From NCBI GenBank assembly GCA_017619275.1, contig JAFZSR010000059.1:1-37535 (forward strand): a stretch of DNA of 37,535 nt, written 5' to 3'. The stretch comes from Prevotella sp. GTDB taxonomy: Bacteria; Bacteroidota; Bacteroidia; Bacteroidales; Bacteroidaceae. A program made the translations under genes and the position numbers. Position 1 is the first letter of the stretch. Every line of letters starts with the position of its first letter. This document shows, in pieces, positions 7,262 through 37,535 of this stretch. The notes below the pieces were generated by a model, which was not told the origin of the DNA, searched no databases, and worked only from the letters and a program-made list of their open reading frames with translations.

Positions 7262-8023
7262 ATGAGCTATCAGAATCCCCGTATCAAGCACCTGTTGCAG
7301 TTGCAACAGAAGTCACAGCTGCGGCGCAGCGAAGGCCTGTTTGTCGTGGAGGGGCGCCGCGAGTTGGAACATTGTCTTGCAGCGGGCTATGAGGTGGAGA
7401 GCCTCTTTGTGCGGAAGGATGAAATGCTCCCCAATCTATCCCTCGGCTTGTCACCCTTTATCCTTCCTCCATCGCTTTATGAGAAGGTTGCCTATCGGGG
7501 CAGTACCGAGGGCGTCATCGCCATTGTCAAGGAGCGGAGATACATGCTCAATGACTTGGCGCTCACCCCCTCTTCTCTATTCGTTGTTCTTGAAAGCGTG
7601 GAGAAACCTGGCAATCTTGGTGCGGTGCTGCGCTCGGCCGACGCGGCTGGTGCCACGGGCGTCATCGTATGCGACCCGCTCACCGATCTCTACAATCCCA
7701 ACCTCATCCGCGCCAGCATCGGCGCCATCTTCACTGTGCCCACCGTGGCCTGCACCAGCGGGGAATGCATCGCCTTCCTGAAGGAGCATGGCATTAGCAT
7801 CCTCACTGCCCAATTGCAAGACTCGCAACTGTATTACGAAACCGACATGCGCGGTCCCACTGCCATTGTGATGGGCACCGAAAGCACTGGCCTCACGCAG
7901 CAGTGGCGCGAGGCCGCCACGGCCCACATTCGCATACCCATGCAGGGCAGGCTTGACTCGCTTAATGTCTCGGTGTCGGCCGCCATCCTCCTCTTTGAGG
8001 CCGTGCGTCAGCGGCGAAGATAG
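7262..8023 (+). CDS. TrmH/SpoU-family RNA 2'-O-methyltransferase
   Basis: A 253-aa protein. The N-terminal part (NPRIKHLLQLQQKSQLRRSE, VVEGRRELE) is the substrate-binding domain of RlmB/TrmH-like enzymes. The C-terminal SPOUT domain shows EKPGNLGAVLRSADA (motif 1), VMGTESTGLTQQ (motif 2) and LNVSVSAAILLFE (motif 3, knot). It uses SAM to methylate a ribose 2'-OH in rRNA or tRNA; the target site cannot be told from sequence. The start may instead be the ATG at 7253. Its 3' end overlaps the convergent gene by 16 bp. There is a promoter just upstream, divergent from the fusion gene. Confidence 0.9.
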   Translation: MSYQNPRIKHLLQLQQKSQLRRSEGLFVVEGRRELEHCLAAGYEVESLFVRKDEMLPNLSLGLSPFILPPSLYEKVAYRGSTEGVIAIVKERRYMLNDLALTPSSLFVVLESVEKPGNLGAVLRSADAAGATGVIVCDPLTDLYNPNLIRASIGAIFTVPTVACTSGECIAFLKEHGISILTAQLQDSQLYYETDMRGPTAIVMGTESTGLTQQWREAATAHIRIPMQGRLDSLNVSVSAAILLFEAVRQRRR

Positions 8024-8823
8024 TTTTCAATCTGCTGCAAGTTGCCGTCCTTGATAATGACCGTCTTTTCGCTGTCGAGTAGATAAAGCGCTGGCAGGGC
8101 GGGCAGGTAATAGAATTTACGTGCGGCGGTATTCTCTTCCACATTAATATATATAGCGCACGTGCGCGAGGCGAAGTCGCGCTCCATCATCTGGCGTATT
8201 TGCGGCATCATCTCTTGGCAGTGCTCGCAGTTGGGGTCGTAGAACACCAATAGCGTCGTCGGGCTTTCCACATAGTAGAGTCTCGGCTCTGGCTCGTCCT
8301 CCGATGTGTACACCACGCAGCCGCTCGCCGCCTTGCCCAAGGGGAGGTCGGCAGCTGTGGTGCCTGGCTGGTTTTTCGTCACCTCGCGCAATAGGAACGT
8401 GCGTTGCGGCGTCGTTGGCAGCACGCGCAGCAGGTGTGCATAGGTCACATCGTTGCGCATGGGCGAGTCGGGATTGCCCAGATAGTGGTCTATCAGTTCG
8501 TCGAACTGCTTCTGCCGGTGAGCTTTACGGGCAATGCTGTCGGCGAAGATGCGCACGCTGCCGGCCTGCACCGCCGAGTCGGCGTATTGCAGCAGGTTGA
8601 TGTAGTCCACGAATCCCTGCTCGGCCGTGGCACGGTTCGTTGCCGTGGAGTCTTCGAAGTTGAAGACGCTCCAGTAGTGTTCCAGCAGAAATTCCAGACG
8701 AGCCTGCGGCTCGGTCATCACTTCGGGAATGGCGGGGAAGGGGAACCTGACCTCCTCCTGTTGGGCGCTTGCCATGGTGCTGGCCAGTAGGCCCACGGTA
8801 AGTATGATGTGTCGTAGTTTCAT
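8008..8823 (-). CDS. Secreted thioredoxin-like protein (DUF5106-type)
   Basis: 271 aa with a signal peptide (to about residue 20, ASAQ). The N-terminal half is helical with FPFPAIPEVMTEPQARLEFL, resembling DUF5106 proteins of Bacteroidales. The C-terminal half is a thioredoxin fold with LLVFYDPNCEHCQEM, i.e. a CxxC active site (CEHC), and a cis-Pro-like LPALPALYLLD segment. It probably acts in the periplasm as a disulfide or thiol redox protein. Its 3' end overlaps the methyltransferase gene on the other strand. A specific client cannot be assigned. Confidence 0.8.
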   Translation of the reverse strand: MKLRHIILTVGLLASTMASAQQEEVRFPFPAIPEVMTEPQARLEFLLEHYWSVFNFEDSTATNRATAEQGFVDYINLLQYADSAVQAGSVRIFADSIARKAHRQKQFDELIDHYLGNPDSPMRNDVTYAHLLRVLPTTPQRTFLLREVTKNQPGTTAADLPLGKAASGCVVYTSEDEPEPRLYYVESPTTLLVFYDPNCEHCQEMMPQIRQMMERDFASRTCAIYINVEENTAARKFYYLPALPALYLLDSEKTVIIKDGNLQQIENYLRR

Positions 8824-8835
8824 TGTTATCGTGTT

Positions 8836-10473
8836 TTATCTTACAGCGGTGAAAGGATCGTTAAGGGTAAAGGTCTTCTCATATCCTTTGGTCTTCACGG
8901 TGTAGGTGTTGCCCAGCTTGAAGTCGGGGCTACCAACGAGGCTGGCACTGCGGCGCATAGAGAAGGGGATGGTAACGGTGAGGATAAGCTTTCCATTCTC
9001 GTCGTAGATGTTAACGGGTTCGTCCTTTGCGATGTTGATGCCGATGAGCAGAGCCGTTGTCTGGCGGGCAGTCTCGTTGGTGGGCACGGAAGGCATCTCG
9101 CCCATGCCGCCGCCGACGGAGAAGATGGTGCCACCCTCGATGACGAAGGGGGCAAAGTCGCCATCAAGACCCTCTTCGGGCGAACCCACCTGACTCCATG
9201 CATAGACAGTGCCGCCGCGTATGACGATGGCGGGGTCCTGCTCCTGCTGGTTGTTGCCACCTAAGCCCATAAAGAAGCCGCCCTTGGGATTGGAGTCCAC
9301 GGCGTCGTTGCCCTTGCTGCGGGCAACAACATGGGCACCATTGAACTCGATGGTGTTGTTGGCGTTAATGGCATCGTCGGTGGCCAGCACATCAATGTTG
9401 CCGCCATTGAGGACGACGCCATCCTTGCCCTCAATGCCTTCGGCTCCAGGGGTGGAAGTCCTCACGGTCACGTTGCCGCTGTTGATGATGATCTTTCCCT
9501 TCGATGCGATGCCCTTGGTGGAGGCTACATATTTATGCTTGCCGCCGAAGCCACCAAAGCCGCCCTCCTCGGTGCTGTCGTTTTCAAAGCCACCAGGGAA
9601 TCCACCACCGAAGCCACCCATCGGGAAGCCGCCGCCAAAGTCGGGCCTCCCTCCACCAAAGCCGGGGAATCCGCCACGCCTGGTGCTGTCGTTGCCTTCG
9701 GGGCGCATCCCCTCAAAGTCGGGTCGTCCTCCGCCGAAGCCGGGGAAGGGCATCCCACCGCCGAAGCCGGGGAATCTGCCTCGCCTGGTGGTGTCGTTGC
9801 CTTCGGGGCGCATACCACCAAAGCCGGGCATGGGAAAACCGCCTCCAAAGTCGGGCCTTTCACCGCCGAAATCGGGCATGTCACCACCGAAACCGGGGAA
9901 ACCACCCATGCCGAATGGCTTCTCGCCCAGGTTGTCGCCTGTGGTCGTCACGTTGAGCGTAAGTTCCTCAATGGTGATGTCCTTCTTGGTCTTGATGCCT
10001 CGGCAACCGTCGCCGGTGGCGATGACGTTAAGTGTTCCTGTGCCTGAAAGCAGCAGCTTATCCTTCGCCCAGATAGTGGCAGCCTTGTGGTTGGCGGTGT
10101 CGTTGCAGGCGGTGATGGTGAGCGTGTTCTCCGTGCCCTTGGTGGCCACAATCTCCACCTTCTTCTTGTTCTTCAGGTTGATGGGCGCACCCTCTTGACT
10201 GGTCAGTGTCAGACCGTCGAGTTTTATCTTTGCCTTGCCGGCCGTCTTCAAGTTGAGTTGTCCGTCGTTGCTTTTGCCTGTCAGGCGGAGGGTGAGCTTA
10301 TGGTCTTTGTATTGACTTTCAATGTTGACTTGGGCGCCATCGACGCTCACGCTCACGCTGTCCTTTAATGTCTGCTCCACTTTCGCCGTCGCCCCTTTAT
10401 AATGGATGGTGATGTCTTCTGCGTAGCACATGCTGCCCATCATCAAGGACAGCAATAATAGCATCTTTTTCAT
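8836..10473 (-). CDS. Cthe_2159-like carbohydrate-binding protein with Gly-rich insert
   Basis: 545 aa from the ATG at 10473, chosen because the signal peptide (MKKMLLLLSLMMGSMCYA) starts there; the frame continues 81 codons upstream without a signal. Residues about 20-185 and 310-520 are repetitive beta strands (KAKIKLDGLTLTS, GIKTKKDITIEE, GIASKGKIIINSG, EGIEGKDGVVLNGG) typical of the Cthe_2159/DUF4353 right-handed beta-helix family, known for polygalacturonate binding. Residues about 185-310 are a low-complexity Gly/Phe/Pro/Asp stretch with repeated FPGFGG, RPDFGG and RPEGNDTTRRG units. That insert looks like an expansion in a beta-helix loop. It is likely secreted; its ligand is unknown. 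Confidence 0.8.
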   Translation of the reverse strand: MKKMLLLLSLMMGSMCYAEDITIHYKGATAKVEQTLKDSVSVSVDGAQVNIESQYKDHKLTLRLTGKSNDGQLNLKTAGKAKIKLDGLTLTSQEGAPINLKNKKKVEIVATKGTENTLTITACNDTANHKAATIWAKDKLLLSGTGTLNVIATGDGCRGIKTKKDITIEELTLNVTTTGDNLGEKPFGMGGFPGFGGDMPDFGGERPDFGGGFPMPGFGGMRPEGNDTTRRGRFPGFGGGMPFPGFGGGRPDFEGMRPEGNDSTRRGGFPGFGGGRPDFGGGFPMGGFGGGFPGGFENDSTEEGGFGGFGGKHKYVASTKGIASKGKIIINSGNVTVRTSTPGAEGIEGKDGVVLNGGNIDVLATDDAINANNTIEFNGAHVVARSKGNDAVDSNPKGGFFMGLGGNNQQEQDPAIVIRGGTVYAWSQVGSPEEGLDGDFAPFVIEGGTIFSVGGGMGEMPSVPTNETARQTTALLIGINIAKDEPVNIYDENGKLILTVTIPFSMRRSASLVGSPDFKLGNTYTVKTKGYEKTFTLNDPFTAVR

Positions 10474-27063: not shown

Positions 27064-27120
27064 AACTATGTATTCCAGAGATGGTATCCGTTTTATTAGT
27101 GTCAATTTCTTAGCTAATTA

Positions 27121-27152
27121 TTTGCTAATTCCGTAAATAATCCTTAACTTTG
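27121..27152 (+). promoter_or_regulatory. Complete Bacteroidetes promoter for the LytTR gene
   Basis: TTTG (27121-27124), 20-nt spacer, TAACTTTG (27145-27152) and GCA. The predicted leader is about 125 nt and contains an imperfect CCAAG/CTTGG hairpin (27224-27245). Confidence 0.85.
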
Positions 27153-27283
27153 CACCGCTGTCTTCTTTCTTCCGTTTCGGTTCCCCTGAGACGAAGTTAC
27201 GAGACAATGTTTAGAGTGGATGACCAAGGTGTTATGTGCACTTGGTTCAGGTTAAATCAGAAATATGAAAAAGACTGGTAGAT

Positions 27284-27646
27284 ATGTACGTTTTCTTCAA
27301 TTCGCGCGATGAGCTGCAACGCATAGATGTCTCAAAGATTGTCTACTTTGAGGCCGATGGCAATTATACCACCATTGTCATGGTCAACAAACTGCAGGCG
27401 TCTGTCTGCATGAACTTGGGCGAGATGGAAAGTGCTTTGGCCAAACAGTTGGGAGAAGAAAGCCGCCGCTTCATGCGTATTGGCAAACGCTTCATCATCA
27501 ACATGAACTATGTCTATTCCATTAATGTGCTGAAGCAGCAGCTGGTGCTTTCCGACTACGACCACTTTGCCTTCCGCGTCAGCATTTCCAAGGAGGCACT
27601 CAAGAAGATGAAGGAACTGATGGTTGCTACCTATATAGAACCGTGA
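27284..27646 (+). CDS. Stand-alone LytTR DNA-binding regulator
   Basis: 120 aa that are almost entirely one LytTR domain: IDVSKIVYFEADGNYTTIV, the L-E-ALAKQL helix, FMRIGKRFIINMNYVYSI and the C-terminal beta strands. LytTR proteins usually follow a response-regulator receiver or membrane sensor domain. Here none is present. It binds DNA and likely controls the downstream genes. Its stop overlaps a GTG that can start the next gene. A 15-codon frame (27265-27312) overlaps its start. Confidence 0.88.
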   Translation: MYVFFNSRDELQRIDVSKIVYFEADGNYTTIVMVNKLQASVCMNLGEMESALAKQLGEESRRFMRIGKRFIINMNYVYSINVLKQQLVLSDYDHFAFRVSISKEALKKMKELMVATYIEP

Positions 27647-27648
27647 GC

Positions 27649-28323
27649 ATGGAAATCGTGATAGGAAGAGACGCCTCCACTTCAAGGTTGAAACTGGTGG
27701 CCGATGGGAAGACGATGCTGGCCGAAGCCGAAGGTGCAGTGCCGCCGACGGTGGCCGATGCGCATTGCAGCCTTACGTTCACCTCCGAAGGCATCAGGCT
27801 GAGGAATCTTGACATCAACCATTATACCTATGTGAATGGGAAGGGCGTAGAAGCCAAGAAAGTGTCAAAGACCGACCACATAGAATTGGGACTCGATCAT
27901 TTTCCTGTTGACTGGAACATCATTGCAATGGTGGCACCCGCCGATGTTAGCCCTTTATGCCGTGTCTGGGATCAATACGAGCAACAAAAGTTGGAGTTGC
28001 AAATTGCTGAGCGTCGCTTCAACAGCTTGCGTTCTGCAACAGGATTGCTCACGATGGTGGCCATAGCGCTCAGTGTGATGACGGGGAGGCAAAGCCTGGG
28101 GTATATCGTGCTTTATGCTACTGCTATCCTTGTTTCTCTTGCTTTCACCATCAAGGCATGGAACAACGCGGCCTCCGTACCTCAAAAAACCGCCCAACTC
28201 ACGCAGCAGTTCCAGCATGACTATGTATGTCCTTGCTGCGGTCGTTTCTTGGGTGGTCAGTCACCCCAAATGTTGGCCCAAAGCGGACATTGTCCCTACT
28301 GTAAGAAACAGTTCATACTTTAA
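27649..28323 (+). CDS. FHA-like membrane protein with C-terminal zinc ribbon
   Basis: 224 aa from ATG 27649. A GTG at 27643, overlapping the upstream stop as GTGA, is an alternative. Residues 1-100 resemble an FHA domain: EIVIGRDASTSRLKL, then VADAHCSLTFTSEGIRLRNLD (the SH-like phospho-Thr loop) and a YTYVNGKGVE strand. Residues about 125-170 hold two hydrophobic helices. The C-terminus has CPCCGRFLGG and CPYCKKQF, a C4 zinc ribbon. FHA domains bind phosphothreonine. With the membrane segments it could be an envelope sensor or scaffold. Confidence 0.72.
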   Translation: MEIVIGRDASTSRLKLVADGKTMLAEAEGAVPPTVADAHCSLTFTSEGIRLRNLDINHYTYVNGKGVEAKKVSKTDHIELGLDHFPVDWNIIAMVAPADVSPLCRVWDQYEQQKLELQIAERRFNSLRSATGLLTMVAIALSVMTGRQSLGYIVLYATAILVSLAFTIKAWNNAASVPQKTAQLTQQFQHDYVCPCCGRFLGGQSPQMLAQSGHCPYCKKQFIL

Positions 28324-28355
28324 TCCCTCCATTTCGTGGATTATGTCACCGATTA

Positions 28356-28387
28356 TTTGGCAGTGAAGAAAAAAAAGTTGAAATTTG
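28356..28387 (+). promoter_or_regulatory. Promoter for the acidic protein gene
   Basis: TTTG (28356-28359), 20-nt spacer, GAAATTTG (28380-28387, 7 of 8 to consensus), GCA. The ATG at 28418 follows after 30 nt. Confidence 0.65.
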
Positions 28388-28417
28388 CATCCGTCAACCA
28401 ATTAAACTATAACAACA

Positions 28418-29212
28418 ATGAAAGCAAAAGAGATTTGGAAGCCAGTAACCATAGGTGGTGTAACTGGTATTGTGATGGGAGCCGGAACCATGTACGCCGT
28501 TAAGCCTGGTGCACAAGAGGAAGACGGAAGTGTGGAAACAGAAGCCGATGTGCATTCAGCTACTCAGGGAGAAGCTGCTATTGCAACAGTCAGCGACGAC
28601 ATGAGTTTCAGCGAAGCTTTTGCAGCCGCACGTGAGGAAACAGGGCCTGGCGGAGTGTTTGCCTGGAGGGGAAATGTATATGGAACGTATATGGCCGATG
28701 AATGGGAAACCATGTCTGACGACGAGAAAGATCTGTTTGCCATGCGCGCCAACACGGCTGCTGGTCAGATGGAAGTAGACAACCATCAAGAACCAGAACC
28801 TGCTGTGGAAGAGCCTGTCGCACCCGATGAGGTGTTGATTGCAGAAAAAGCAGAAGAAGAGGCAACCATTGTAGTGCAGGAACCGGTGGCGACGGTGGAT
28901 GATGAGCTTAGTGCCAATGCTACTACATGGGATGAAATCGCCAACGAAGAAAACGAAGTGCGCGTAGTGGGCTACGAGAACGTTGAGGTGGGTGATGGCC
29001 AATCAGTCATCATGCAGGAACTTGACGTGAATGGCCAGCGTGTGGCATTGATTGACGTTGACAACGATGGTGTGGCCGATTTGGTTATGAGCGACTTGAA
29101 CCACAACTACGAGATGGACGAAGGCGAGGTGATAGATCTGCAGACTGGCGAGGCCGTTTCGTTTACCAACGATGATATGCCTGTGGACGATTCTTTTGAT
29201 GCTACCATCTGA
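28418..29212 (+). CDS. Acidic anchored protein with EF-hand-like loops
   Basis: 264 aa. Residues about 10-30 are a Gly-rich hydrophobic segment (TIGGVTGIVMGAGTMYAV), a single anchor. Residues about 65-110 hold a conserved-looking segment: FSEAFAAAREETGPGGVF, then WRGNVYGTY and WETMSDDEK. A Glu/Val/Ala-rich linker follows. Residues about 205-245 carry DVDNDGVADLV and DLNHNYEMDEGE, each a D-x-D/N-x-D/N-G-type calcium loop. The protein is strongly acidic. It is unidentified. It is the first gene of the second half of the LytTR-FHA cluster and probably sits outside the inner membrane. Confidence 0.7.
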   Translation: MKAKEIWKPVTIGGVTGIVMGAGTMYAVKPGAQEEDGSVETEADVHSATQGEAAIATVSDDMSFSEAFAAAREETGPGGVFAWRGNVYGTYMADEWETMSDDEKDLFAMRANTAAGQMEVDNHQEPEPAVEEPVAPDEVLIAEKAEEEATIVVQEPVATVDDELSANATTWDEIANEENEVRVVGYENVEVGDGQSVIMQELDVNGQRVALIDVDNDGVADLVMSDLNHNYEMDEGEVIDLQTGEAVSFTNDDMPVDDSFDATI

Positions 29213-29229
29213 TCTTTCTTGCATAGAAC

Positions 29230-30186
29230 ATGATTGACCAGCTGCGCATCAAATGTCCCTCATGCGGTGTCGTGCTGGAGGTGAAGAACCCCCGGCACGA
29301 AGCCGTCAAACGCATCACCTGCCCTCAGTGCAAACGGCAAATGGATATTGACTTCCAGGAAAAGCAACCTGCAGGAAAGCCGTCTTCAGCTGCCCTCTGT
29401 GCACTTTACCTGGGGCGACAGCCACTGCAGCTGACAGAAGGTGAGAATTCAATCCTTCTGACTGGATTTGAGCATTTAAAGGTGGAAGTGGTGCGCATCA
29501 GCGACAGCAGCTTCAAGTATGTAACCAGCGTTATGTCGATGGAGTCCACTGTCATGCTGAACGATGAACGCATAGAAGTGGGCGATAAGATAGTGATGGC
29601 AGTCGGCGACAAACTGGGTGCTGCCGGCACAGTGCTGACATTTGGCCAACCAGCCGAAGACCCTATTCCTGCAGCTCCTTCTTCTGTTCCTCCACCCGTC
29701 AAGCCCGACCCTCCCAAACCGAAAAAGAAAATCCTTCCTTGGCTCGGTGGTGGTATGGCATTTGTGCTCGTGGCCTTGTTGGTATGGGCCTTTTGGCCCG
29801 CCAAGAACCATGGAGGGGTGAAAATGACATTGCCAAAGCCTCAACATACTACGGAAAGAGTGGATGTTCAAGGAGAGAAAAAAACTGTTGAGGAAAAAAA
29901 GGAGGTGAAAATAAAGCCGACAGAAGAGCAGAGAAAGGTTCAAACTGTGGAGAAGAAGAAAGAACCTGAGAAGAAAGAATCAGAAAAGACAGAACCTATA
30001 AAGAAAGAACAAACCGACTACGACCTGGAGGTGCTCTGTGCCCAAGGCAACACATCGGCCATGTACCAGCTGGGGCGGCGCTGGGTGAACACTGGCAAGC
30101 ACCGTCAGGGTGTGCAGTATCTGCAGCAAGCGGCGGCGGCAGGGCATGCCGGCGCCAAGCGGTTGCTCGAAGAAAACAATTGGTAG
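29230..30186 (+). CDS. Zinc-ribbon / FHA-like / TM / Sel1 protein
   Basis: 318 aa. CPSCGVVLEV and CPQCKRQMDI (residues about 9-36) form a zinc ribbon. Residues about 55-140 are beta-rich with FHA-like strands (VMLNDERIEVGDKIVM). A Pro-rich linker leads to one TM helix (LGGGMAFVLVALLVWAF, near 180). A Lys/Glu-rich stalk precedes the C-terminal Sel1-like repeat (SAMYQLGRRW, HRQGVQYLQQAAAAGHAGAK). Orientation with the zinc ribbon inside and Sel1 outside is an inference. It ends 1 bp before the next gene. Confidence 0.75.
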   Translation: MIDQLRIKCPSCGVVLEVKNPRHEAVKRITCPQCKRQMDIDFQEKQPAGKPSSAALCALYLGRQPLQLTEGENSILLTGFEHLKVEVVRISDSSFKYVTSVMSMESTVMLNDERIEVGDKIVMAVGDKLGAAGTVLTFGQPAEDPIPAAPSSVPPPVKPDPPKPKKKILPWLGGGMAFVLVALLVWAFWPAKNHGGVKMTLPKPQHTTERVDVQGEKKTVEEKKEVKIKPTEEQRKVQTVEKKKEPEKKESEKTEPIKKEQTDYDLEVLCAQGNTSAMYQLGRRWVNTGKHRQGVQYLQQAAAAGHAGAKRLLEENNW

Positions 30187-30187
30187 G

Positions 30188-31231
30188 ATGAAGAAACGTC
30201 TTGTCCATACACTCATCCTGTGCTGGGTTGTTGCTTTGGCATCCTCGGCCCGCACGGTCTATCGCACGGCAGAGCTGGAGCGACTGGCCACCGTGTTGCG
30301 GTTGGAGGGCACGTCAGTGGCCGAGGGCTACAGCCATCCCGTGGCCGGAGGCATCACCCTCACCGTGCATCGGCAGGGTGGGGTGGTCGACCATCTGGGG
30401 TGCCGGCTCTTCAGCGACGAGTTGCGCACGGCGGTCCATTCGCCCGTGCTCAACTTCCTCGAGCGCTATTTCCTACAGCTGCGCTTTCCCCCACAGACCA
30501 AGACGGCCAGCACGATGATGCGCGACGACGATGTCCATTTCCTGGTGGGGTCGACGGCCGTCATCAGCCAACTCACCCCTTCCGACCATTTCAGCTTCTG
30601 CTACGACCAGCGTCGGTGCGAGGCCACATGGAGTCGCGAGGGCAGGACGCTGCTGAAGGTGCTCTTCCCCGTGGAGCATCAGCTCATCAGTGGCGAGAAC
30701 AAGATTGAGGCCGAGAACAACCTGAAGGGCGATGTGCTCCGCACAGCCTTCATGGGCTTGGCCGACCGGCCGACTCTGCTCGACGATGCCACCTATCTCA
30801 GCAAGAGCTATTCCAACCGCGTCTATCTGGTGGCCGGAATGCCTATCATCAGCTTGCGCCACCCGGCTGAGTCGGCTGCCAACATGCTGCTCAGCATGCA
30901 GGCGGCGCAGGACATCGACATCACCATCACGCAAGCCAACTACGGGTTTAATAAGAGCGTGTTCACCGTGCCCCTCCAGCAATGGATTGCTTTCTGTCGC
31001 AACAACGCTTGTGAGCTGTTCTTCGGTGTGAGGGACATCAGCGCGCAGGGCGATGTGGAGGCGACGGTGCTGGCCGTGAACGAGCAGATGAACTACAACC
31101 ATGTGCTCTCCGTCACCATCCCGGCGCAGGTCATCCGCCAGCGGCAGGGGACCGTCGAGGCTCGCCTCTATCCCTACGTGCCCACGCACAACATCGCCGG
31201 CATTCTTGCCGCCTATCGAACCACCAAATAG
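30188..31231 (+). CDS. Secreted protein of unknown function (cluster gene)
   Basis: 347 aa from ATG 30188. The signal peptide (HTLILCWVVALASSARTVY) begins there, and the upstream extension lies in the preceding gene. The mature part contains conserved-looking segments such as VAGGITLTVH, FFGVRDISAQGDVEATV and ARLYPYVP. No motif known to me is recognised. It is translationally coupled to the zinc-ribbon gene and followed 9 bp later by the NTF2-like secreted gene. Confidence 0.65.
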   Translation: MKKRLVHTLILCWVVALASSARTVYRTAELERLATVLRLEGTSVAEGYSHPVAGGITLTVHRQGGVVDHLGCRLFSDELRTAVHSPVLNFLERYFLQLRFPPQTKTASTMMRDDDVHFLVGSTAVISQLTPSDHFSFCYDQRRCEATWSREGRTLLKVLFPVEHQLISGENKIEAENNLKGDVLRTAFMGLADRPTLLDDATYLSKSYSNRVYLVAGMPIISLRHPAESAANMLLSMQAAQDIDITITQANYGFNKSVFTVPLQQWIAFCRNNACELFFGVRDISAQGDVEATVLAVNEQMNYNHVLSVTIPAQVIRQRQGTVEARLYPYVPTHNIAGILAAYRTTK

Positions 31232-31240
31232 AACCTGAAT

Positions 31241-32236
31241 ATGAAGAAACTCCTCCTCTTTGCATTGTTTATCCTTGCATCCTTGCCAGTGGCTATGGCC
31301 TATCGGCAGGTGCATTTCACTGTCAGCGACGGTACCAGCGACGCCGAACTTAAAGAACGCATAGAATATGCCATGTCGCTGCTGCTGACCGAAGTCAACC
31401 GGGCCCACGAAGCCCACATGTCGGTGATCACAGTGCCCTCGTTCGTGGCTACTGCTGAGGCGCAGCAGGACATCGGCAAGCTATGGAAGAACGAGCATTT
31501 CCTGTGCGATGCAGAGCAGGTCAGCGAGCGGTTGCTCACCGTCCGCGACGGCTACCAGGTGCGTGGCATCCCCCTCGTCGTCACCGACAGCACAGGCCAG
31601 AATCAGCTGGGACGCCAGGAGGCCGTGGTCAGCTTCGACAAGCGGGGCACCATCACCAGCTTCTACTATACCATCAACCCCGAGCTCTATTCCTCGCTCT
31701 ACAAGCAGTGGATGCAGGAGAAACACCATGAGACCACCGACATCAACGACCGAATGATGGTGCTGAACTATGTGGAGCACTTCCGTACGGCCTACAACCA
31801 GAAAGACCTCTCGTTCCTGCAGCAGGTGTTCTCCGACGATGCCCTCATCATCACGGGGCGCGTCATTCGTGTGCGCCGCTCCGACATGAATCCGGCGGGC
31901 GTGGACATCAAATATATCCGCCATAGCAAACAAGAATACATCTCCAACCTCGGCCGTGTGTTCCGTGCCAACAGCTACGTCCGCGTCAAGTTCGACGATG
32001 TCACCATCGTTCCCCATCCCACGCTCCGCAACATCTATGGCGTCACCGTCCACCAGCAATGGAACTCCTCGTCCTATAGCGATGAGGGCTATGTCTTCAT
32101 GGTCTGGGATTTCCGCAATCAGGATGAGCCGCAAATCCATGTACGCACCTGGCAGCCGGAGTTCCTCGACAAGGCGCAAGGGCAGCGACTCAGCCGCGAT
32201 GCCGTGTTCACGCTTGGCGACTTCGACCTGCAGTAA
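31241..32236 (+). CDS. Secreted NTF2-like protein (cluster gene)
   Basis: 331 aa with a signal peptide (MKKLLLFALFILASLPVAMA). The N-terminal half has no known motif. Residues about 170-330 show a SnoaL/NTF2-like pattern: NYVEHFRTAYNQKDLSFLQQVFSDDALIITG, followed by VKFDDVTIVPHP, YGVTVHQQW and YVFMVWDF. NTF2 domains bind small ligands or act as scaffolds. It is the last gene of the putative module. Confidence 0.68.
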   Translation: MKKLLLFALFILASLPVAMAYRQVHFTVSDGTSDAELKERIEYAMSLLLTEVNRAHEAHMSVITVPSFVATAEAQQDIGKLWKNEHFLCDAEQVSERLLTVRDGYQVRGIPLVVTDSTGQNQLGRQEAVVSFDKRGTITSFYYTINPELYSSLYKQWMQEKHHETTDINDRMMVLNYVEHFRTAYNQKDLSFLQQVFSDDALIITGRVIRVRRSDMNPAGVDIKYIRHSKQEYISNLGRVFRANSYVRVKFDDVTIVPHPTLRNIYGVTVHQQWNSSSYSDEGYVFMVWDFRNQDEPQIHVRTWQPEFLDKAQGQRLSRDAVFTLGDFDLQ

Positions 32237-32297: not shown

Positions 32298-32588
32298 ATG
32301 GAAGAAAAGAAATATCCCATGATTGACGAGGAAAACGGCTTGGACAAGGCATCTGAGCCAGTAGCTGAGTCTGTCCGTACCAACCCCGCCAAGGGTATCA
32401 GCGTTTCAGGCGGAGATATTGACGAAGTTGACTGGGATCTGCTTCTCAGCTATGGCCCCTTCTCTGAGGAAGAGGCAATTGCAAGGATAGACAGGTTTGA
32501 AGAACAATTGGAAAAAGGGCAGGTTCGTTGGACTTCTTCAGAGGAGTTCGACAAACAGCTTTATGAAGAGTTCCCATGGCTAAGATAG
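32298..32588 (+). CDS. Putative antitoxin
   Basis: 96 aa, acidic, no signal. SVSGGDIDEVDWDLL and FSEEEAIARIDRFEEQLEKG are the recognisable stretches. It is upstream of a ParE-like gene with a 13-bp overlap, the usual order of antitoxin then toxin. The DNA-binding type is not clear. Confidence 0.65.
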   Translation: MEEKKYPMIDEENGLDKASEPVAESVRTNPAKGISVSGGDIDEVDWDLLLSYGPFSEEEAIARIDRFEEQLEKGQVRWTSSEEFDKQLYEEFPWLR

Positions 32589-32908
32589 AATGGAGCGAAG
32601 AGGCAAAGCAGGCCTTTAGGGCATACGTCGAAAACGCTCGTCTTGAATTCGGGGTTTCTACGGCTCGTCAATGGCAGACGGAGAGGAAATCCTTAGAATG
32701 GAACTTGAAGCGCTACCCAACATCTTTTACGCCAGAGGCGTTATTGCAGGAACGAAAACTCTTGTATAGACGATGCCATCTGATGAACCGACGCTTTAAG
32801 CTTATCTACTTCTATGATGAGCAGAATGACACCGTCCGTATCGTAGACATTTGGGATTCCAAAATGAATCCCAAGGCATTGGTGAGAAGGATTGAGAAAT
32901 CAGAATGA
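32576..32908 (+). CDS. ParE/RelE-like toxin
   Basis: 110 aa. IEWSEEAKQAFRAYVENA at the N-terminus, FTPEALLQERKLLYRR in the middle and FKLIYFYDEQNDTVRIVDIWDSKMNP at the C-terminus match the RelE/ParE fold, which targets gyrase (ParE) or ribosomal mRNA (RelE). The target cannot be chosen from sequence. Its end overlaps the start region of the BspA gene. Confidence 0.8.
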   Translation: MAKIEWSEEAKQAFRAYVENARLEFGVSTARQWQTERKSLEWNLKRYPTSFTPEALLQERKLLYRRCHLMNRRFKLIYFYDEQNDTVRIVDIWDSKMNPKALVRRIEKSE

Positions 32909-32936
32909 ATATTATTTTGTTATGCATACTTTTATG

Positions 32937-34985
32937 ATGAAACGTTTTTATATCAGTGCTCTACTTACCCTGTTCATGATTATGGTAGGCACTCAGGCTT
33001 CCGCACACGACATCGAGGTGGCGAACAGTGACGGGGTGACCATCTATTACAAATGGACGAACAACAACACAGAGTTGGCTGTGAGTTTCAGAGGTTATTA
33101 TTTTAATAGCTATTCAAACGAATATACTGGTAGCGTAGTCATCCCCTCATCCGTCACTTTCAACGGAACCACCTATCCCGTGACGAGCATTGGTGAATAT
33201 GCTTTCTTAAACTGCAGCTACCTGACCTCAGTGACCATCCCTTCAAGCGTGACGAGCATTGGTTACGGGGCTTTCCAGGGCTGCAGCGGTATGACCTCGG
33301 TGACCGTTAATGGAGGTAACTGCAGATATGACTCACGAAACAATTGCAATGCCATCATTGAAACAGCAACCAACACACTAATCATCGGTTGCATGAACAC
33401 TATTATCCCTAACACGGTGACGAGCATAGGTGACGAGGCTTTCGCTGGCTGCAGCGGTCTGACCTCGGTGACCATCCCTTCGAGCATTACGAGCATCGGT
33501 GAATATGCTTTCGATGACTGCGACGGTCTGACCTCGGTGACCATCCCTTCAAGTGTGACGAGCATCGGTAACGAGGCTTTCACTGAATGCGACGGCCTGA
33601 CCTCGGTGACCATCCCTTCGAACGTAACGAGCATTGGTGGAGGTGCGTTTTCTGATTGCTACGGTCTAAATGAAATCAATTTCAATGCCACTAATTGCAC
33701 TTCAATGGGAAATTCTAATAATTCCGTTTTTTATGGATGTCTTAATCTTGTATCCCTGAGTATTGGTGATAACGTACAGAACATACCTGCTTATGCTTTC
33801 TATGGCTGCCGCGGCCTGACCTCGGTGACCATCCCTTCGAGCGTAACGAGCATCGGCAACTCTGCTTTCTTTGGTTGCAGCGGCCTGACCTCGGTGACCA
33901 TCCCTTCGAGCGTGACGACTATTGGTGACAAATCTTTCTATGGTTGCAGCGGTCTGACATCGGTGACGGTAAGGATGGAAAATCCTGTGGACATAGAACA
34001 ACATACATTCACGAACAGGACGAATGCGACATTGTATGTTCCTTATGGTTGCAAAGCTGCCTATGAGGCCGCCGACTATTGGAAGGAATTCAAGGAGATA
34101 GTTGAGATGACATCTCAGAATTCAATCATCACCTTTGCCGATGCCAATGTGAAAGCTCTCTGCGTGGGCAATTGGGATACCAATGGCGATGGCGAGTTGG
34201 ATGAATCTGAAGCTGCAGCCGTGACGGACTTAGGGGCAGTGTTTCAAAGCAATTCTTCAATAAAAACTTTCAATGAGTTGCAATACTTCACGGGACTTAC
34301 GAGCATCGGCAACTCTGCTTTCCGAGGCTGCAGCGGTCTGACCTCGGTGACCATCCCTTCGAGCGTGACGAGTATCGGTAACTTTGCTTTCTCTAACTGC
34401 AGCGGCCTGACCTCAGTGAACATCCCTCCGAGCGTGAAGAGCATCGGTAGCTCTGCTTTCCAGGACTGCAGTGGCCTGACCTCGGTGAGCATCCCTTCGA
34501 GCGTGTCGAGAATTGGTTACGGTACTTTTTGGGGCTGCAGTGGCTTGACCTCGGTGACCATCCCATCGAGCGTGATAAGCATCGGTGAATCTGCTTTCGT
34601 AAGGTGCAGCGGTCTAACCTCGGTGAGCATCCCTTCGAGCGTGGAAAGCATTGGTGAAGGTGCCTTCTCAAGTTGTAGTGGTATGACCTCGGTGATTATT
34701 CCTTCGAGCGTGACGAGTATAGGTGAAAACGCTTTCTCTAACTGCTGGGGCTTAACCTCTATATCTGTTGCATCTCACAACGACAAATATGATTCACGAA
34801 ATAATTGCAATGCCATCATTGAAACGGAAACCAACGCAATGATAGCTGGTTGCAAAAACACCATCATTCCCAACACGGTAACGAGCATCGGTTCTGCATT
34901 CTATGGATGTTCCAGCCTGACCTCGGTGAATATCCCTTCGAGCGTGACGAGCATCGGTAATGCTGCGTTCTATAATTGTATTTAG
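32937..34985 (+). CDS. BspA-type leucine-rich repeat surface protein, 3'-truncated
   Basis: 682 aa from ATG 32937 (MKRFYISALL, signal peptide); the ATG at 32934 is equivalent. About 17 copies of a 23-residue LRR with LTSVTIPSSVTSIGxxAFxxC (BspA type, as in Bacteroidetes surface adhesins) are split by a DTNGDGELDESE calcium loop (near residue 420) and two copies of a CRYDSRNNCNAIIET block. The protein ends abruptly at FYNC-Ile-stop, inside a repeat, without any sorting domain. It looks broken at its 3' end. Confidence 0.88.
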   Translation: MKRFYISALLTLFMIMVGTQASAHDIEVANSDGVTIYYKWTNNNTELAVSFRGYYFNSYSNEYTGSVVIPSSVTFNGTTYPVTSIGEYAFLNCSYLTSVTIPSSVTSIGYGAFQGCSGMTSVTVNGGNCRYDSRNNCNAIIETATNTLIIGCMNTIIPNTVTSIGDEAFAGCSGLTSVTIPSSITSIGEYAFDDCDGLTSVTIPSSVTSIGNEAFTECDGLTSVTIPSNVTSIGGGAFSDCYGLNEINFNATNCTSMGNSNNSVFYGCLNLVSLSIGDNVQNIPAYAFYGCRGLTSVTIPSSVTSIGNSAFFGCSGLTSVTIPSSVTTIGDKSFYGCSGLTSVTVRMENPVDIEQHTFTNRTNATLYVPYGCKAAYEAADYWKEFKEIVEMTSQNSIITFADANVKALCVGNWDTNGDGELDESEAAAVTDLGAVFQSNSSIKTFNELQYFTGLTSIGNSAFRGCSGLTSVTIPSSVTSIGNFAFSNCSGLTSVNIPPSVKSIGSSAFQDCSGLTSVSIPSSVSRIGYGTFWGCSGLTSVTIPSSVISIGESAFVRCSGLTSVSIPSSVESIGEGAFSSCSGMTSVIIPSSVTSIGENAFSNCWGLTSISVASHNDKYDSRNNCNAIIETETNAMIAGCKNTIIPNTVTSIGSAFYGCSSLTSVNIPSSVTSIGNAAFYNCI

Positions 34986-34996
34986 AGACCTCTAAA
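34981..34996. repeat. 16-bp palindrome at the BspA stop codon
   Basis: TTTAGAG-AC-CTCTAAA covers the TAG stop of the truncated gene. It may mark the junction of the integrative element. Confidence 0.5.
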
Positions 34997-35077
34997 CAAC
35001 CATGAATAACACAAAACAACCAAACATAAACCATTGTATTACAGCTACTTTTAGATTTTAACACTTCGGAAGGCATT

Positions 35078-35109
35078 TTTGGTTGCTTCGGAAAATCCCC
35101 ATATATTTG
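35078..35109 (+). promoter_or_regulatory. Promoter for the HTH gene
   Basis: TTTG (35078-35081), 20-nt spacer, TATATTTG (35102-35109). The leader would run about 215 nt to the ATG at 35333. The rest of this 347-bp gap shows no gene. Confidence 0.7.
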
Positions 35110-35332
35110 CAACGTATTTCTACCGCAGGGAATTTACGGAGCTTATTTTTTGCCACATCGTGATCGTAGTTGACAATGGTTTCTGATGGGTAACGACAGA
35201 TAACAGATTCCTAAGCAGCTTTTGAGGAAAGCAACATCGTGGCGAAAGGCGACAATGGGAGTCCACGGCTGACATGAGTTTACTTGCGGAGAGGTACAAC
35301 AAGAACATGTTGAACCCATAAATATCGCAAGT

Positions 35333-36280
35333 ATGTCAAAGAGCAGAAAGTGTGCCCTTTGTGGCAAAATGTTTGTTCCGAACAGCGGAACGCAGAAGTA
35401 TTGTTCGGAGGAATGTGCCGAGCAAGCAAAGGAAAGCAAGAAGAAAAGGCAACGTGAATTCCTCCGTGCCATTGAGCCAGTGATGGAACTCCAGCAACAA
35501 GAGTACTTGACCTTCTCTAAAGCAGCCATTCTTTTAGGCTGTACCCGTCAGTATGTTTATAAACTTGTTGAGCAGGGAAAGCTGCCAGCCTCTCGGTTAA
35601 GTAGTCGAATGGCTCTTGTCCGCAGGAGTGACATTGAAAAGATGTTTGATAGCAATCCTTACAATCAGGTCATTCCCTGTTCAAAACCGAAAAAGGTAGT
35701 ATCCAAGAAACAAAGAACGTCTTCGAGAAAAGACACTAAGAATGTACTACCCACAGATGAAGTCCTTGAATACTACTCTGGCGAGGAAGTGATGCAGACC
35801 TATAAAGTCAAACAATCTTGGCTCTATGCTTCTGCTAAGCGTCATCAGATACCCATGTGCCGAATTGCTGGCCGAAACTACTATAGCAAGAAACACATTG
35901 AGGCCGTTTTTGGCACTTGCATTGACCTTGATGCCATTGTCGACTGGCTTAATCCCCAAGAAGTGGCAGACCGCTATGGCATCAACCTCACTGCTGTCCG
36001 TTCATATGCTCATCGCCACAAGATACCGAGTAAGCGCGAGTACGGCCACACCTACTATTCCCAAAGTCACTTTGATGAACTTCGCCGTACCGACCTATTA
36101 TCAGACGAGAACTACTACACCGTTGAACAAGTGCAGGAACTCTATGGGTTGACGAAGGCTAACATCTGCCATATAGTCAAGGTCAAGCACGTTGCAAAGA
36201 CCAAGGTGGGCAGAATCAACCTCCTTCTTCGTTCCGATGTGGAGCGGGTGATGGCAGAAAGAAAGGCTGCTGGATTCTGA
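35333..36280 (+). CDS. Four-module excisionase-like HTH protein with Cys finger
   Basis: 315 aa. Residues about 5-30 have CALCGKMF and YCSEECAEQ, a Cys4 finger. Four similar modules of about 50 residues follow, near 56-104, 145-192, 205-250 and 262-309. Each has an EV/AA-x4-Y/L-x-V/C helix-turn-helix and a following winged strand, e.g. VADRYGINLTAVRSYAHRH. Single modules of this type (HTH_17/MerR-like) occur in excisionases. It is directly upstream of a tyrosine recombinase and may be its directionality factor or regulator. Confidence 0.75.
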   Translation: MSKSRKCALCGKMFVPNSGTQKYCSEECAEQAKESKKKRQREFLRAIEPVMELQQQEYLTFSKAAILLGCTRQYVYKLVEQGKLPASRLSSRMALVRRSDIEKMFDSNPYNQVIPCSKPKKVVSKKQRTSSRKDTKNVLPTDEVLEYYSGEEVMQTYKVKQSWLYASAKRHQIPMCRIAGRNYYSKKHIEAVFGTCIDLDAIVDWLNPQEVADRYGINLTAVRSYAHRHKIPSKREYGHTYYSQSHFDELRRTDLLSDENYYTVEQVQELYGLTKANICHIVKVKHVAKTKVGRINLLLRSDVERVMAERKAAGF

Positions 36281-36411: not shown

Positions 36412-37535
36412 ATGAGTAACATCTGCAAAACCGTGACACTCCGCACACGGAAAATCAAAGGCGGAGAACAACTGTCCTTCTATCTGGACTATTATCCTGG
36501 TTACAGGGACGAGAGTACGATGAAGGTCATGAGACATGAATCCCTCGGTATCTACATCTACGCCAAGCCGAAGAACCAGCGAGAACGGGACTACAATGAC
36601 CGTATGCGCGAGAAGGCAGAAGCCCTCCGCTGTCGTCGCTATGAATCCATAGTCAATGAGAGATATGATTTCTTTGACAGTGATAAGATGAAGGGAGATT
36701 TTCTCGCCTACTTCAAAGCCAAGGCGGACCATAAGAACTGCAAGTGGCAACATGTCTATAAGCACTTTGCTCGATTCTGCAACAACAAATGCCGCTTCGA
36801 TGAAATCAATGTTAATCTCTGCAACAAGTTCCGTGAGTACCTGCTGACCGCTCCGCAGACCATCCACACCGAACACAAACTTCACGTCAATTCCATAGCT
36901 GGATATTGGTCAACTTTTAGGGCTGTGCTTCATACCGCCTATAGGGAACACAAGATTATGGAGAACCCCAATGGCTTCTTGGAACGGGTTGATACCATCC
37001 CAACTGAAAAGGAACATTTGTCCAAGGATGAACTTGTCAGGTTGGCAAACACTCCGTGTGAATATCCTGTGCTGAAGACAGCTTTCCTCTTTGCCTGTTT
37101 GACAGGATTGAGAAAGAGCGACATTCGTCAGCTCACATGGGAGAACATACAACCATATGGTGATGGAGGAATGTACGTCACTCTTCGTATGCAGAAGACC
37201 AAGGAACTTGTGAATAATCCCATCAGTGACGAGGCACTGGAACTGATTGGCGGCAGCGGAACAGGTAAAGTGTTCGAAGGATTCTCAGACAAAATGACGC
37301 AGACACCCTTGAAGAATTGGCTGAAAGCCGCTGGTATCACCAAGAAAATCTCGTTCCATTGCAGCCGCCATACCTTCGGCTCATTACAGGTGGATGCAGG
37401 TACAAGTGTCTATACCGTCCAACATATGCTGGGGCACAAGAACGTATCGACCACACAGATATATGCAACCATGGCAGATGACTCAAAGAGAGAGTCTGTC
37501 AACCGCATTACACTCAAACCGACTAAGACGGTGCA
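36412..37535 (+). CDS. Tyrosine recombinase/integrase, runs off the window
   Basis: At least 374 aa, open at the window end. The N-terminal SAM-like core-binding domain contains WQHVYKHFARFC. The C-terminal catalytic domain has CLTGLRKSDIRQLTW (Arg, near 233), HCSRHTFGS (H-x-x-R, near 316-319), HMLGHKN (His, near 343) and TQIYATM (nucleophilic Tyr, near 353). All catalytic residues are present. It belongs to the Bacteroidetes mobilisable/conjugative-element integrases. The last residues lie beyond the window. Confidence 0.92.
   Translation, partial: MSNICKTVTLRTRKIKGGEQLSFYLDYYPGYRDESTMKVMRHESLGIYIYAKPKNQRERDYNDRMREKAEALRCRRYESIVNERYDFFDSDKMKGDFLAYFKAKADHKNCKWQHVYKHFARFCNNKCRFDEINVNLCNKFREYLLTAPQTIHTEHKLHVNSIAGYWSTFRAVLHTAYREHKIMENPNGFLERVDTIPTEKEHLSKDELVRLANTPCEYPVLKTAFLFACLTGLRKSDIRQLTWENIQPYGDGGMYVTLRMQKTKELVNNPISDEALELIGGSGTGKVFEGFSDKMTQTPLKNWLKAAGITKKISFHCSRHTFGSLQVDAGTSVYTVQHMLGHKNVSTTQIYATMADDSKRESVNRITLKPTKTV

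What the first reader, a model, noticed from the sequence alone, without database searches (positions are those of the whole stretch)
27121..32236. Uncharacterised LytTR-FHA-zinc ribbon-Sel1 module
A lone LytTR regulator is coupled to an FHA/TM/zinc-ribbon protein, followed by an acidic anchored protein with calcium-type loops, a zinc-ribbon/FHA-like/TM/Sel1 protein and two secreted proteins. Two good Bacteroidetes promoters drive the two halves. Tight spacing (0-20 bp) suggests a dedicated module. None of the usual partners (kinase, secretion ATPase, toxin) is seen, so it may be a novel envelope signalling or assembly system.
Basis: partly seen in the sequence, partly recalled or inferred. 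Interest (0 to 1): 0.75.

Follow-up and report, generated by a model that had tools for sequence, protein, structure and literature searches.

The report
Modular trans-envelope switch in Prevotella
These six linked genes look like one module that joins a DNA-binding regulator inside the cell to exported proteins in the envelope and to a neighbouring large surface protein; related bacteria carry versions with interchangeable inner and outer halves, and what the module does is not yet known.

Summary
The six genes are real and form a conserved unit: LytTR (A), FHA/TM/zinc-ribbon (B), acidic one-TM protein (C), zinc-ribbon/degenerate-FHA/TM/Sel1 (D), and two exported proteins (E, F). The order recurs in 12 of 21 loci fetched with F. 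It is a composite of two cassettes: (I) LytTR-B-C-D with PP2C phosphatase, Ser/Thr kinase and often a caspase; (II) tubulin-like protein, TM adaptor ending in MORN, E, LPP20-like c5, F. In the window type D joins the cassette-I head to a TM-Sel1 adaptor, the cassette-I kinase and phosphatase are absent, and both FHA domains have lost residues recalled as phosphothreonine-binding. One relative kept A-B-C and D's head but has another outer domain on D together with another E-F lineage: a natural exchange suggesting that D's outer domain docks to E-F. Both promoters exist; a conserved operator-like block lies before C, not before A. A BspA-type LRR gene follows in 14 of 16 loci. Best reading: a trans-envelope module tied to BspA-like surface proteins with LytTR as output; direction and signal are inferred. 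My paper searches found no match.

The parts
27121..27152 (+). Promoter of A-B: TTTG-N20-TAACTTTG (Bacteroidetes-type -33/-7, motif recalled)
   Evidence: pattern scan; similar boxes seen by eye upstream of A in several relatives
27284..27646 (+). A: stand-alone LytTR DNA-binding protein, 120 aa
   Evidence: Pfam LytTR 2.1e-12; 51-81% identical to 14 relatives
27649..28323 (+). B: FHA domain, hydrophobic stretch 127-168 (probable hairpin), C-terminal zinc ribbon, 224 aa
   Evidence: Pfam FHA over cut-off; alignment A2; hydropathy
28329..28345 (+). Operator-like block CCATTTCGTGGATTATG between B and C; candidate LytTR site (inferred)
   Evidence: the block or a close variant before C in 14 of 14 window-type loci, with a regex fitted on those loci; exact core in 9 of the 14; alignment A10; the only match with under 2 mismatches in the own genome. 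By itself in one window the core is not beyond chance (1 found, 1.75 expected at 1 mismatch)
28356..28387 (+). Promoter of C-F: TTTG-N20-GAAATTTG
   Evidence: TTTG of the -7 box in all 17 rows of A10
28418..29212 (+). C: acidic protein with N-terminal hydrophobic anchor and D-rich loops near the C-terminus, 264 aa
29230..30186 (+). D: zinc ribbon - degenerate FHA - TM (168-186) - Lys/Glu-rich linker - Sel1-like end, 318 aa; proposed inner-membrane connector
30188..31231 (+). E: exported protein, 347 aa, no Pfam family
   Evidence: AlphaFold model, mean pLDDT 83, pTM 0.65
31241..32236 (+). F: exported protein, 331 aa, NTF2-like C-terminal part; homologous to the C-terminal part of a longer LPP20-NTF2 protein
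   Evidence: Pfam Cds6_C 6e-5, below cut-off; hhalign E 2.5e-40 to A11
32922..34985 (+). BspA-type LRR_5 protein (687 aa), recurrent downstream partner; ends within a repeat near an integrative element
   Evidence: Pfam LRR_5 4e-139; 14 of 16 loci

Best explanation
The six genes encode one trans-envelope module. D is the inner-membrane connector: its zinc-ribbon/degenerate-FHA head lies in the cytoplasm near B, and its Sel1 end in the periplasm docks to exported E-F (with c5 and an outer-membrane barrel in relatives), which serve the adjacent BspA-type LRR surface protein. B holds or releases the LytTR regulator A at the membrane, and A drives the second promoter (C-D-E-F) through the block at 28329-28345. 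State at the surface is thus read inside and changes how much of the envelope part is made. Shown by sequence: gene linkage, domain order, promoter patterns, the conserved block, exchange of D's outer domain together with E-F, loss of FHA residues, BspA neighbourhood. Inferred: every contact, A binding the block, B as A's partner, topology, and the inward direction of the signal.
For: Order A-B-C-D-E-c5-F in 12 of 21 loci (D split in two of them). In 41 of 48 full-length E loci the gene directly before E is a TM adaptor of the MORN/Sel1 kind, with differing cytoplasmic heads: zinc ribbon, ZnR-FHA, kinase, pseudo-kinase, TIR. Natural exchange: L030's B lies inside the window-type clade (14 rows, 99/96), its E outside (one clade rejected, AU p 6e-5), its F outside, and its D ends in MORN, not Sel1. 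A directly upstream of B in 26 of 34 loci. Block or close variant before C in 14 of 14. BspA gene on the same strand within 3 kb downstream of F in 14 of 16, none upstream, against 83 LRR_5 matches in roughly 30 frames (counted by eye) in the 3.59-Mb own genome.
Against: No experiment; no binding shown. The window copy lacks c5, shows no c3-type barrel gene in the mapped stretch, and its BspA frame is cut short, so it may be decaying. No LytTR direct repeat was found; the half-repeat 21 bp after the block coincides with the -33 box. B occurs without a LytTR gene called next to it in 8 of 34 loci. FHA decay is one evolutionary change without replication. E-c5-F stand without A-D or adaptor in L053 and L139. 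The loci are related, so the counts are not independent.
Confidence: 0.45

Rival explanations
1. Assembly or export device: D-E-F (with c5 and the c3 outer-membrane protein in relatives) fold, carry or anchor BspA-type LRR proteins; A-B-C only set expression level and there is no inward signal.
For: BspA neighbourhood; LPP20, NTF2-like, barrel, PD40-LysM and BACON neighbours in relatives are envelope-type proteins.
Against: No ATPase, channel or usher was recognised among the six proteins; E-c5-F of the tubulin type have no BspA hit downstream (0 of 23, but only 5 of these have over 5 kb of sequence there); roughly 30 BspA-type frames occur in the own genome, which has only one E and one B.
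Confidence: 0.3
2. Conflict or defence island: families around the module in relatives (kinase, PP2C, caspase, TIR, tubulin-like, DUF2971, toxin-antitoxin) recall phage-defence or cell-death systems, and A-F is a derived trigger unit.
For: Caspase and TIR relatives, with PADLOC caspase and ThsB-like hits; DUF2971 and TA genes downstream.
Against: None of the six window proteins matches PADLOC at E 0.01; no effector recognised in the module; export of E/F and the BspA neighbourhood fit poorly. The PADLOC kinase hits are generic kinase matches.
Confidence: 0.1
3. A LytTR Regulatory System (LRS) proper: A is kept inactive by membrane protein B and activates its own operon; C-F are merely regulated neighbours.
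For: A lone LytTR gene followed at 2 bp by a membrane-protein gene; A-B adjacency in 26 of 34; LRS as described in passages of PMC6193735.
Against: The conserved block lies before C, not before A, and no direct repeat of 8 nt or more was found at the window's A promoter (a 7-nt GCTAATT pair 11 bp apart is visible by eye near 27115, below that length and not seen conserved). B carries FHA and a zinc ribbon.
Confidence: 0.1
4. A decaying remnant: this copy has lost c5 and part of BspA and has no function now.
For: c5 not found; BspA frame ends within a repeat beside an excisionase and integrase; D's Sel1 end is shorter than in relatives.
Against: All six frames are open, promoters and block are kept; c5 is also not called after E in L030, L033, L036 and the second composite type.
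Confidence: 0.1

Closest known systems
LytTR Regulatory Systems (HdrRM, BrsRM; PMC6193735, passages seen)
   Same: soluble LytTR regulator gene followed by a gene for a membrane protein that could hold it
   Different: no repeat or conserved block found at the A-B promoter; B carries FHA and zinc ribbon; four further genes reach into the envelope
Ser/Thr kinase - PP2C - FHA signalling loci
   Same: A-D families sit in such loci in relatives
   Different: kinase and phosphatase absent here; both FHA domains lack the full set of residues recalled as phosphothreonine-binding
LPP20-domain envelope proteins (PF02169)
   Same: c5 and F match the two ends of a longer exported protein whose N-terminus is LPP20
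   Different: split into separate genes behind a TM adaptor with exchangeable heads; c5 is missing in the window
Tubulin_2 (PF13809) loci of Bacteroidales
   Same: carry E-c5-F with a TM adaptor in front
   Different: no LytTR/FHA part; adaptor ends in MORN; no tubulin-like protein in the window type
BspA-type LRR surface proteins (PF13306)
   Same: a BspA-type gene follows the module
   Different: BspA-type genes are far more widespread than the module

Membership tests
LytTR Regulatory System | LytTR regulator gene adjacent to a membrane-protein gene | tested here: met
   2-bp gap in the window; A directly upstream of B in 26 of 34 loci
LytTR Regulatory System | direct repeats just upstream of the promoter of the regulator operon | tested here: not met
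   no direct repeat of 8 nt or more at the A promoters of the window and 5 of 6 relatives, one 22-nt pair in L066; the conserved block is absent before A. Ungapped repeats under about 65% alike, or shorter than 8 nt, would be missed
LytTR Regulatory System | membrane protein inhibits the regulator | not testable with these tools
   needs a deletion or reporter assay
Ser/Thr kinase-PP2C-FHA signalling locus | kinase and phosphatase encoded with the FHA proteins | tested here: not met
   no kinase or phosphatase among the window genes scanned or called by profile; three kinases elsewhere in the genome; 18 of 19 non-window-type loci have PP2C and/or kinase
Ser/Thr kinase-PP2C-FHA signalling locus | FHA keeps the GR and SxxH residues (roles recalled) | tested here: not met
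   B: SRxH in 15 of 19 kinase-type rows, 0 of 14 window-type rows (window: GR kept, ADAH). D: GR in 18 of 18 and SRxH in 16 of 18 kinase-type rows, 0 of 13 window-type rows for both
Known anti-phage defence system | match to a defence-protein model | tested here: not met
   no PADLOC hit for the six proteins at E 0.01
LPP20-NTF2 long envelope protein family | sequence homology | tested here: met
   F to A11, E 2.5e-40; A11 members match LPP20 in 6 of 6. For c5, absent in the window: N-terminus to A11, probability 90.9

The most novel reading that the evidence does not exclude
A so far unnamed class of modular trans-envelope complex in Bacteroidales: a one-TM connector with an exchangeable cytoplasmic head (zinc ribbon, FHA, kinase, pseudo-kinase or TIR) and a periplasmic MORN/Sel1 end paired with a matching exported set (E, LPP20-like c5, NTF2-like F). 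In rumen-type Prevotella it has been wired to a LytTR regulator and to BspA-type surface proteins as a kinase-free contact or surface-state sensor.
Probability: 0.35. Interest if true: 0.8.

Novelty: new variant of a known kind. Interest (0 to 1): 0.6.

Why it matters
Few ways by which Bacteroidales pass information between surface proteins and the genome are understood (general knowledge). Here one outer set of proteins goes with many inner heads (kinase, FHA, TIR, tubulin-linked zinc ribbon), and evolution has exchanged the halves. If the reading holds, it gives a testable general scheme for coupling across the envelope, an example of a phospho-signalling cassette turned kinase-free, and a candidate control system for part of the BspA-like surface proteins.

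Tried and rejected
Chance neighbours: rejected, since the gene order recurs. c5 elsewhere in the own genome: not found with an A6 profile, but the assembly is 85% complete. A regulon from the operator block: six hits at up to 2 mismatches including the site itself, against two for the backwards control; no regulon shown. LytTR direct repeats: the second half, 21 bp on (TTTGG/ATGG), is the -33 box, and a repeat search found none; not claimed. Solved-structure relatives by sequence: E two hits, E 0.97 and 1.3; F none; c5 hits to designed PPR proteins down to 6.5e-6, set aside as matches of a short helical stretch, untested further. Pfam on 24 E members: no family in more than one member. Viral contigs: no relative of F. 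Rfam on the window: only a tRNA. Phylogenetic independence of FHA decay: one change of arrangement, no power. Papers: searches gave listings with abstract starts; passages were read in PMC6193735 and PMC7159879 only. No module of this kind was seen there; the library holds open-licence PubMed Central papers only.

Rows dropped before counts: L029 and L031 (same contigs as L047 and L055); L138 (same as L052); L065 and L050 at contig edges (L050 kept for the BspA count); L126 (a divergent B) from the B tree and from the 14-against-19 comparison; L040_5655 (another protein hit by the D profile) from the D counts; L055 has no row in the D alignment. Short E (L035, L162-L164) are not among the 48. 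The map script dropped window D because the E frame it chose overlaps it (D was added by hand and) and the PP2C of L035 that one search shows.
Full report
OBSERVATION. The window holds six consecutive + strand genes between 27284 and 32236. A is a lone LytTR protein (Pfam 2.1e-12) and B an FHA protein (over cut-off); F ends in an NTF2-like region (Cds6_C, below cut-off); E matches no Pfam family. B has hydrophobic segments between residues 127 and 168, C one at 10-28, D one at 168-186; E and F start with signal-peptide-like segments. Gaps are 2, 94, 17, 1 and 9 bp. Both promoter patterns exist: TTTG-N20-TAACTTTG at 27121 and TTTG-N20-GAAATTTG at 28356.

CONSERVATION. A scan of genome contigs with F gave 21 loci: 14 titled Prevotella or Prevotellaceae, the others Bacteroidaceae, Bacteroides, Muribaculaceae (3), Porphyromonadaceae and 'uncultured bacterium'; several names give yak, deer or sheep stomach samples. 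In 12 of the 21 the order A-B-C-D-E-c5-F is seen (D split in L055 and L057). L053 has E-c5-F without A-D, five are of the tubulin type, three are cut by contig ends. In 150 genomes of the genus, B was found in 24 and E in 38.

TWO CASSETTES. Maps of 40 further stretches show two arrangements. Cassette I: LytTR, B, C, often a caspase (PF00656), D as a short zinc-ribbon/FHA protein, PP2C, Ser/Thr kinase. Of 19 B loci not of the window type, 18 have PP2C and/or a kinase within 9 kb; the miss, L173, is a 5.3-kb contig. Cassette II: a TM protein, a tubulin-like protein (PF13809), an adaptor (TM, MORN), E, c5, F, at times a barrel/PEGA protein. The window type joins A-D of I to E-F of II. Of its 14 loci, L064 has PP2C and kinase genes upstream of A, and L055 and L057 have a kinase-profile hit on their pseudo-kinase gene; the rest have neither in the sequence held, which is short upstream in L048 and L051. 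A second composite type (L035, L162-L164) places a short E and F inside a kinase cassette.

ADAPTOR RULE AND NATURAL EXCHANGE. Of 48 full-length E genes, 41 are directly preceded by an adaptor gene: 38 with a MORN- or Sel1-profile hit, plus the window's D (left out of that map), L057 (Pfam MORN just below cut-off) and L052 (TM and pseudo-kinase; MORN not tested). A TM was predicted in all but L159. The seven exceptions are L053, L126, L139, L150, L151, L152, L154; L150 has a PD40-LysM protein and L151 a Sel1 protein there. Heads differ: zinc ribbon, ZnR-FHA, kinase (L033), TIR (L036), pseudo-kinase. L030, a second copy in genome G018, is the key case: its B is nested among window-type B proteins (14 rows, 99/96), but its E is not (one clade rejected, AU p 6e-5), nor its F, and its D ends in MORN (profile E 8e-28), where the ten other unsplit relatives and the window have Sel1-type ends. 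Inner part kept, outer end and E-F different together: the simplest reason is that D's outer end and E-F must match. This is one clear case.

LOSS OF PHOSPHO-RECOGNITION. B keeps SRxH in 15 of 19 kinase-type rows and 0 of 14 window-type rows; four of the 14 keep the serine and 13 the GR arginine; the window reads ADAH. In D, GR is in 18 of 18 and SRxH in 16 of 18 kinase-type rows, both in 0 of 13 window-type rows: the loop is missing or shrunk in 12 and altered in L057. That these residues bind phosphothreonine is recalled. On the B tree the arrangement changed once, so this is a correlation without replication. Three kinases exist elsewhere in the own genome.

REGULATION. The block CCATTTCGTGGANTATG or a close variant lies before C in 14 of 14 window-type loci, its ATTT 78-98 bp before the start codon called (the search expression was fitted on these loci); the exact core CATTTCRTGGA is in 9 of them, and in the 72 loci held then it occurs elsewhere only in L032. 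Of 19 C-upstream regions of other types, 5 score above all but at most 2 of 300 shuffles (L163_3481, L166, L168, L173, L174); 14 do not. One window alone would not make the core significant. I infer that A binds it. No direct repeat of 8 nt or more was found at the A promoter of the window or 5 of 6 relatives, nor at the window's C promoter, so the repeats that mark LytTR Regulatory Systems (PMC6193735, passages) are not shown.

SURFACE LINK. A BspA-type LRR gene lies downstream of F on the same strand in 14 of 16 window-type F loci, the nearest within 3 kb (search radius 6 kb), none upstream; two of the 14 hits are short pieces (L055 at a contig end, L056). Misses: L048 (0.65 kb of sequence) and L064 (7.6 kb). 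Two of the 16 (L050, L053) show no A-D. The second composite type has 0 of 4 and the tubulin type 0 of 23, but only five of those have over 5 kb downstream; the profile was seeded from these loci. The own genome has 83 LRR_5 matches in roughly 30 frames (by eye) over 3.59 Mb, so chance placement beside F should be uncommon, with the caveat that the loci are related. In the window the BspA frame stops within a repeat at 34985, before an excisionase-like and an integrase gene.

PROTEINS. c5 and F match the two ends of a longer exported LPP20-NTF2 protein. The E model has mean pLDDT 83, pTM 0.65 and two alpha/beta parts (about 28-185 and 226-343); that they repeat each other is my untested impression. 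No fold comparison was obtained.

MECHANISM. I commit to a trans-envelope module: D connects cytoplasm and periplasm, E-F (plus c5 and barrel where present) form the outer part, B tethers or restrains A, and A sets output at the C promoter. Linkage, domain order, the exchange and the BspA neighbourhood are shown; contacts, topology, direction and trigger are inferred. The strongest rival is an assembly or export role for BspA without inward signalling.

VERDICT. My paper searches (open-licence papers only) showed no such system.

Noticed in passing
L049 about 5030-5125, and likewise in L051, L055, L064, L040, upstream of the LytTR gene: A conserved structured element of about 95 nt (GCGTGGG...CCCACGC stem, GGCAATGCGAGAGCC hairpin); 8 of 28 predicted pairs have both-side changes in 5 sequences. 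No Rfam match. The 15-nt hairpin core occurs exactly in 5 of 30 genomes, once in the own genome at C114.
   Followed up: partly
window 32922-36280 and 36412-37535: The BspA LRR frame ends within a repeat beside an excisionase-like gene and a tyrosine integrase; L056 shows a similar set after a 111-aa BspA piece.
   Followed up: partly
window 32298-32908: A ParE-like toxin gene with a small upstream partner; relatives of the pair lie near the module in L046, L047 and L064 and as pieces in L065 and L066.
   Followed up: no
G000:C77 about 7893-10211 (L071): A Ser/Thr kinase reading frame that also carries LRR_5 (BspA-type) repeats, with two further LRR_5 frames downstream.
   Followed up: no
L037, L041-L045: Exported proteins of about 600 aa with LPP20 at the N-terminus and an F-like C-terminus; c5 and F look like their split form.
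   Followed up: partly
L036 11978-12952 (G057): A TIR-TM-MORN protein directly before E and F, possibly a TIR-headed form of the adaptor.
   Followed up: partly
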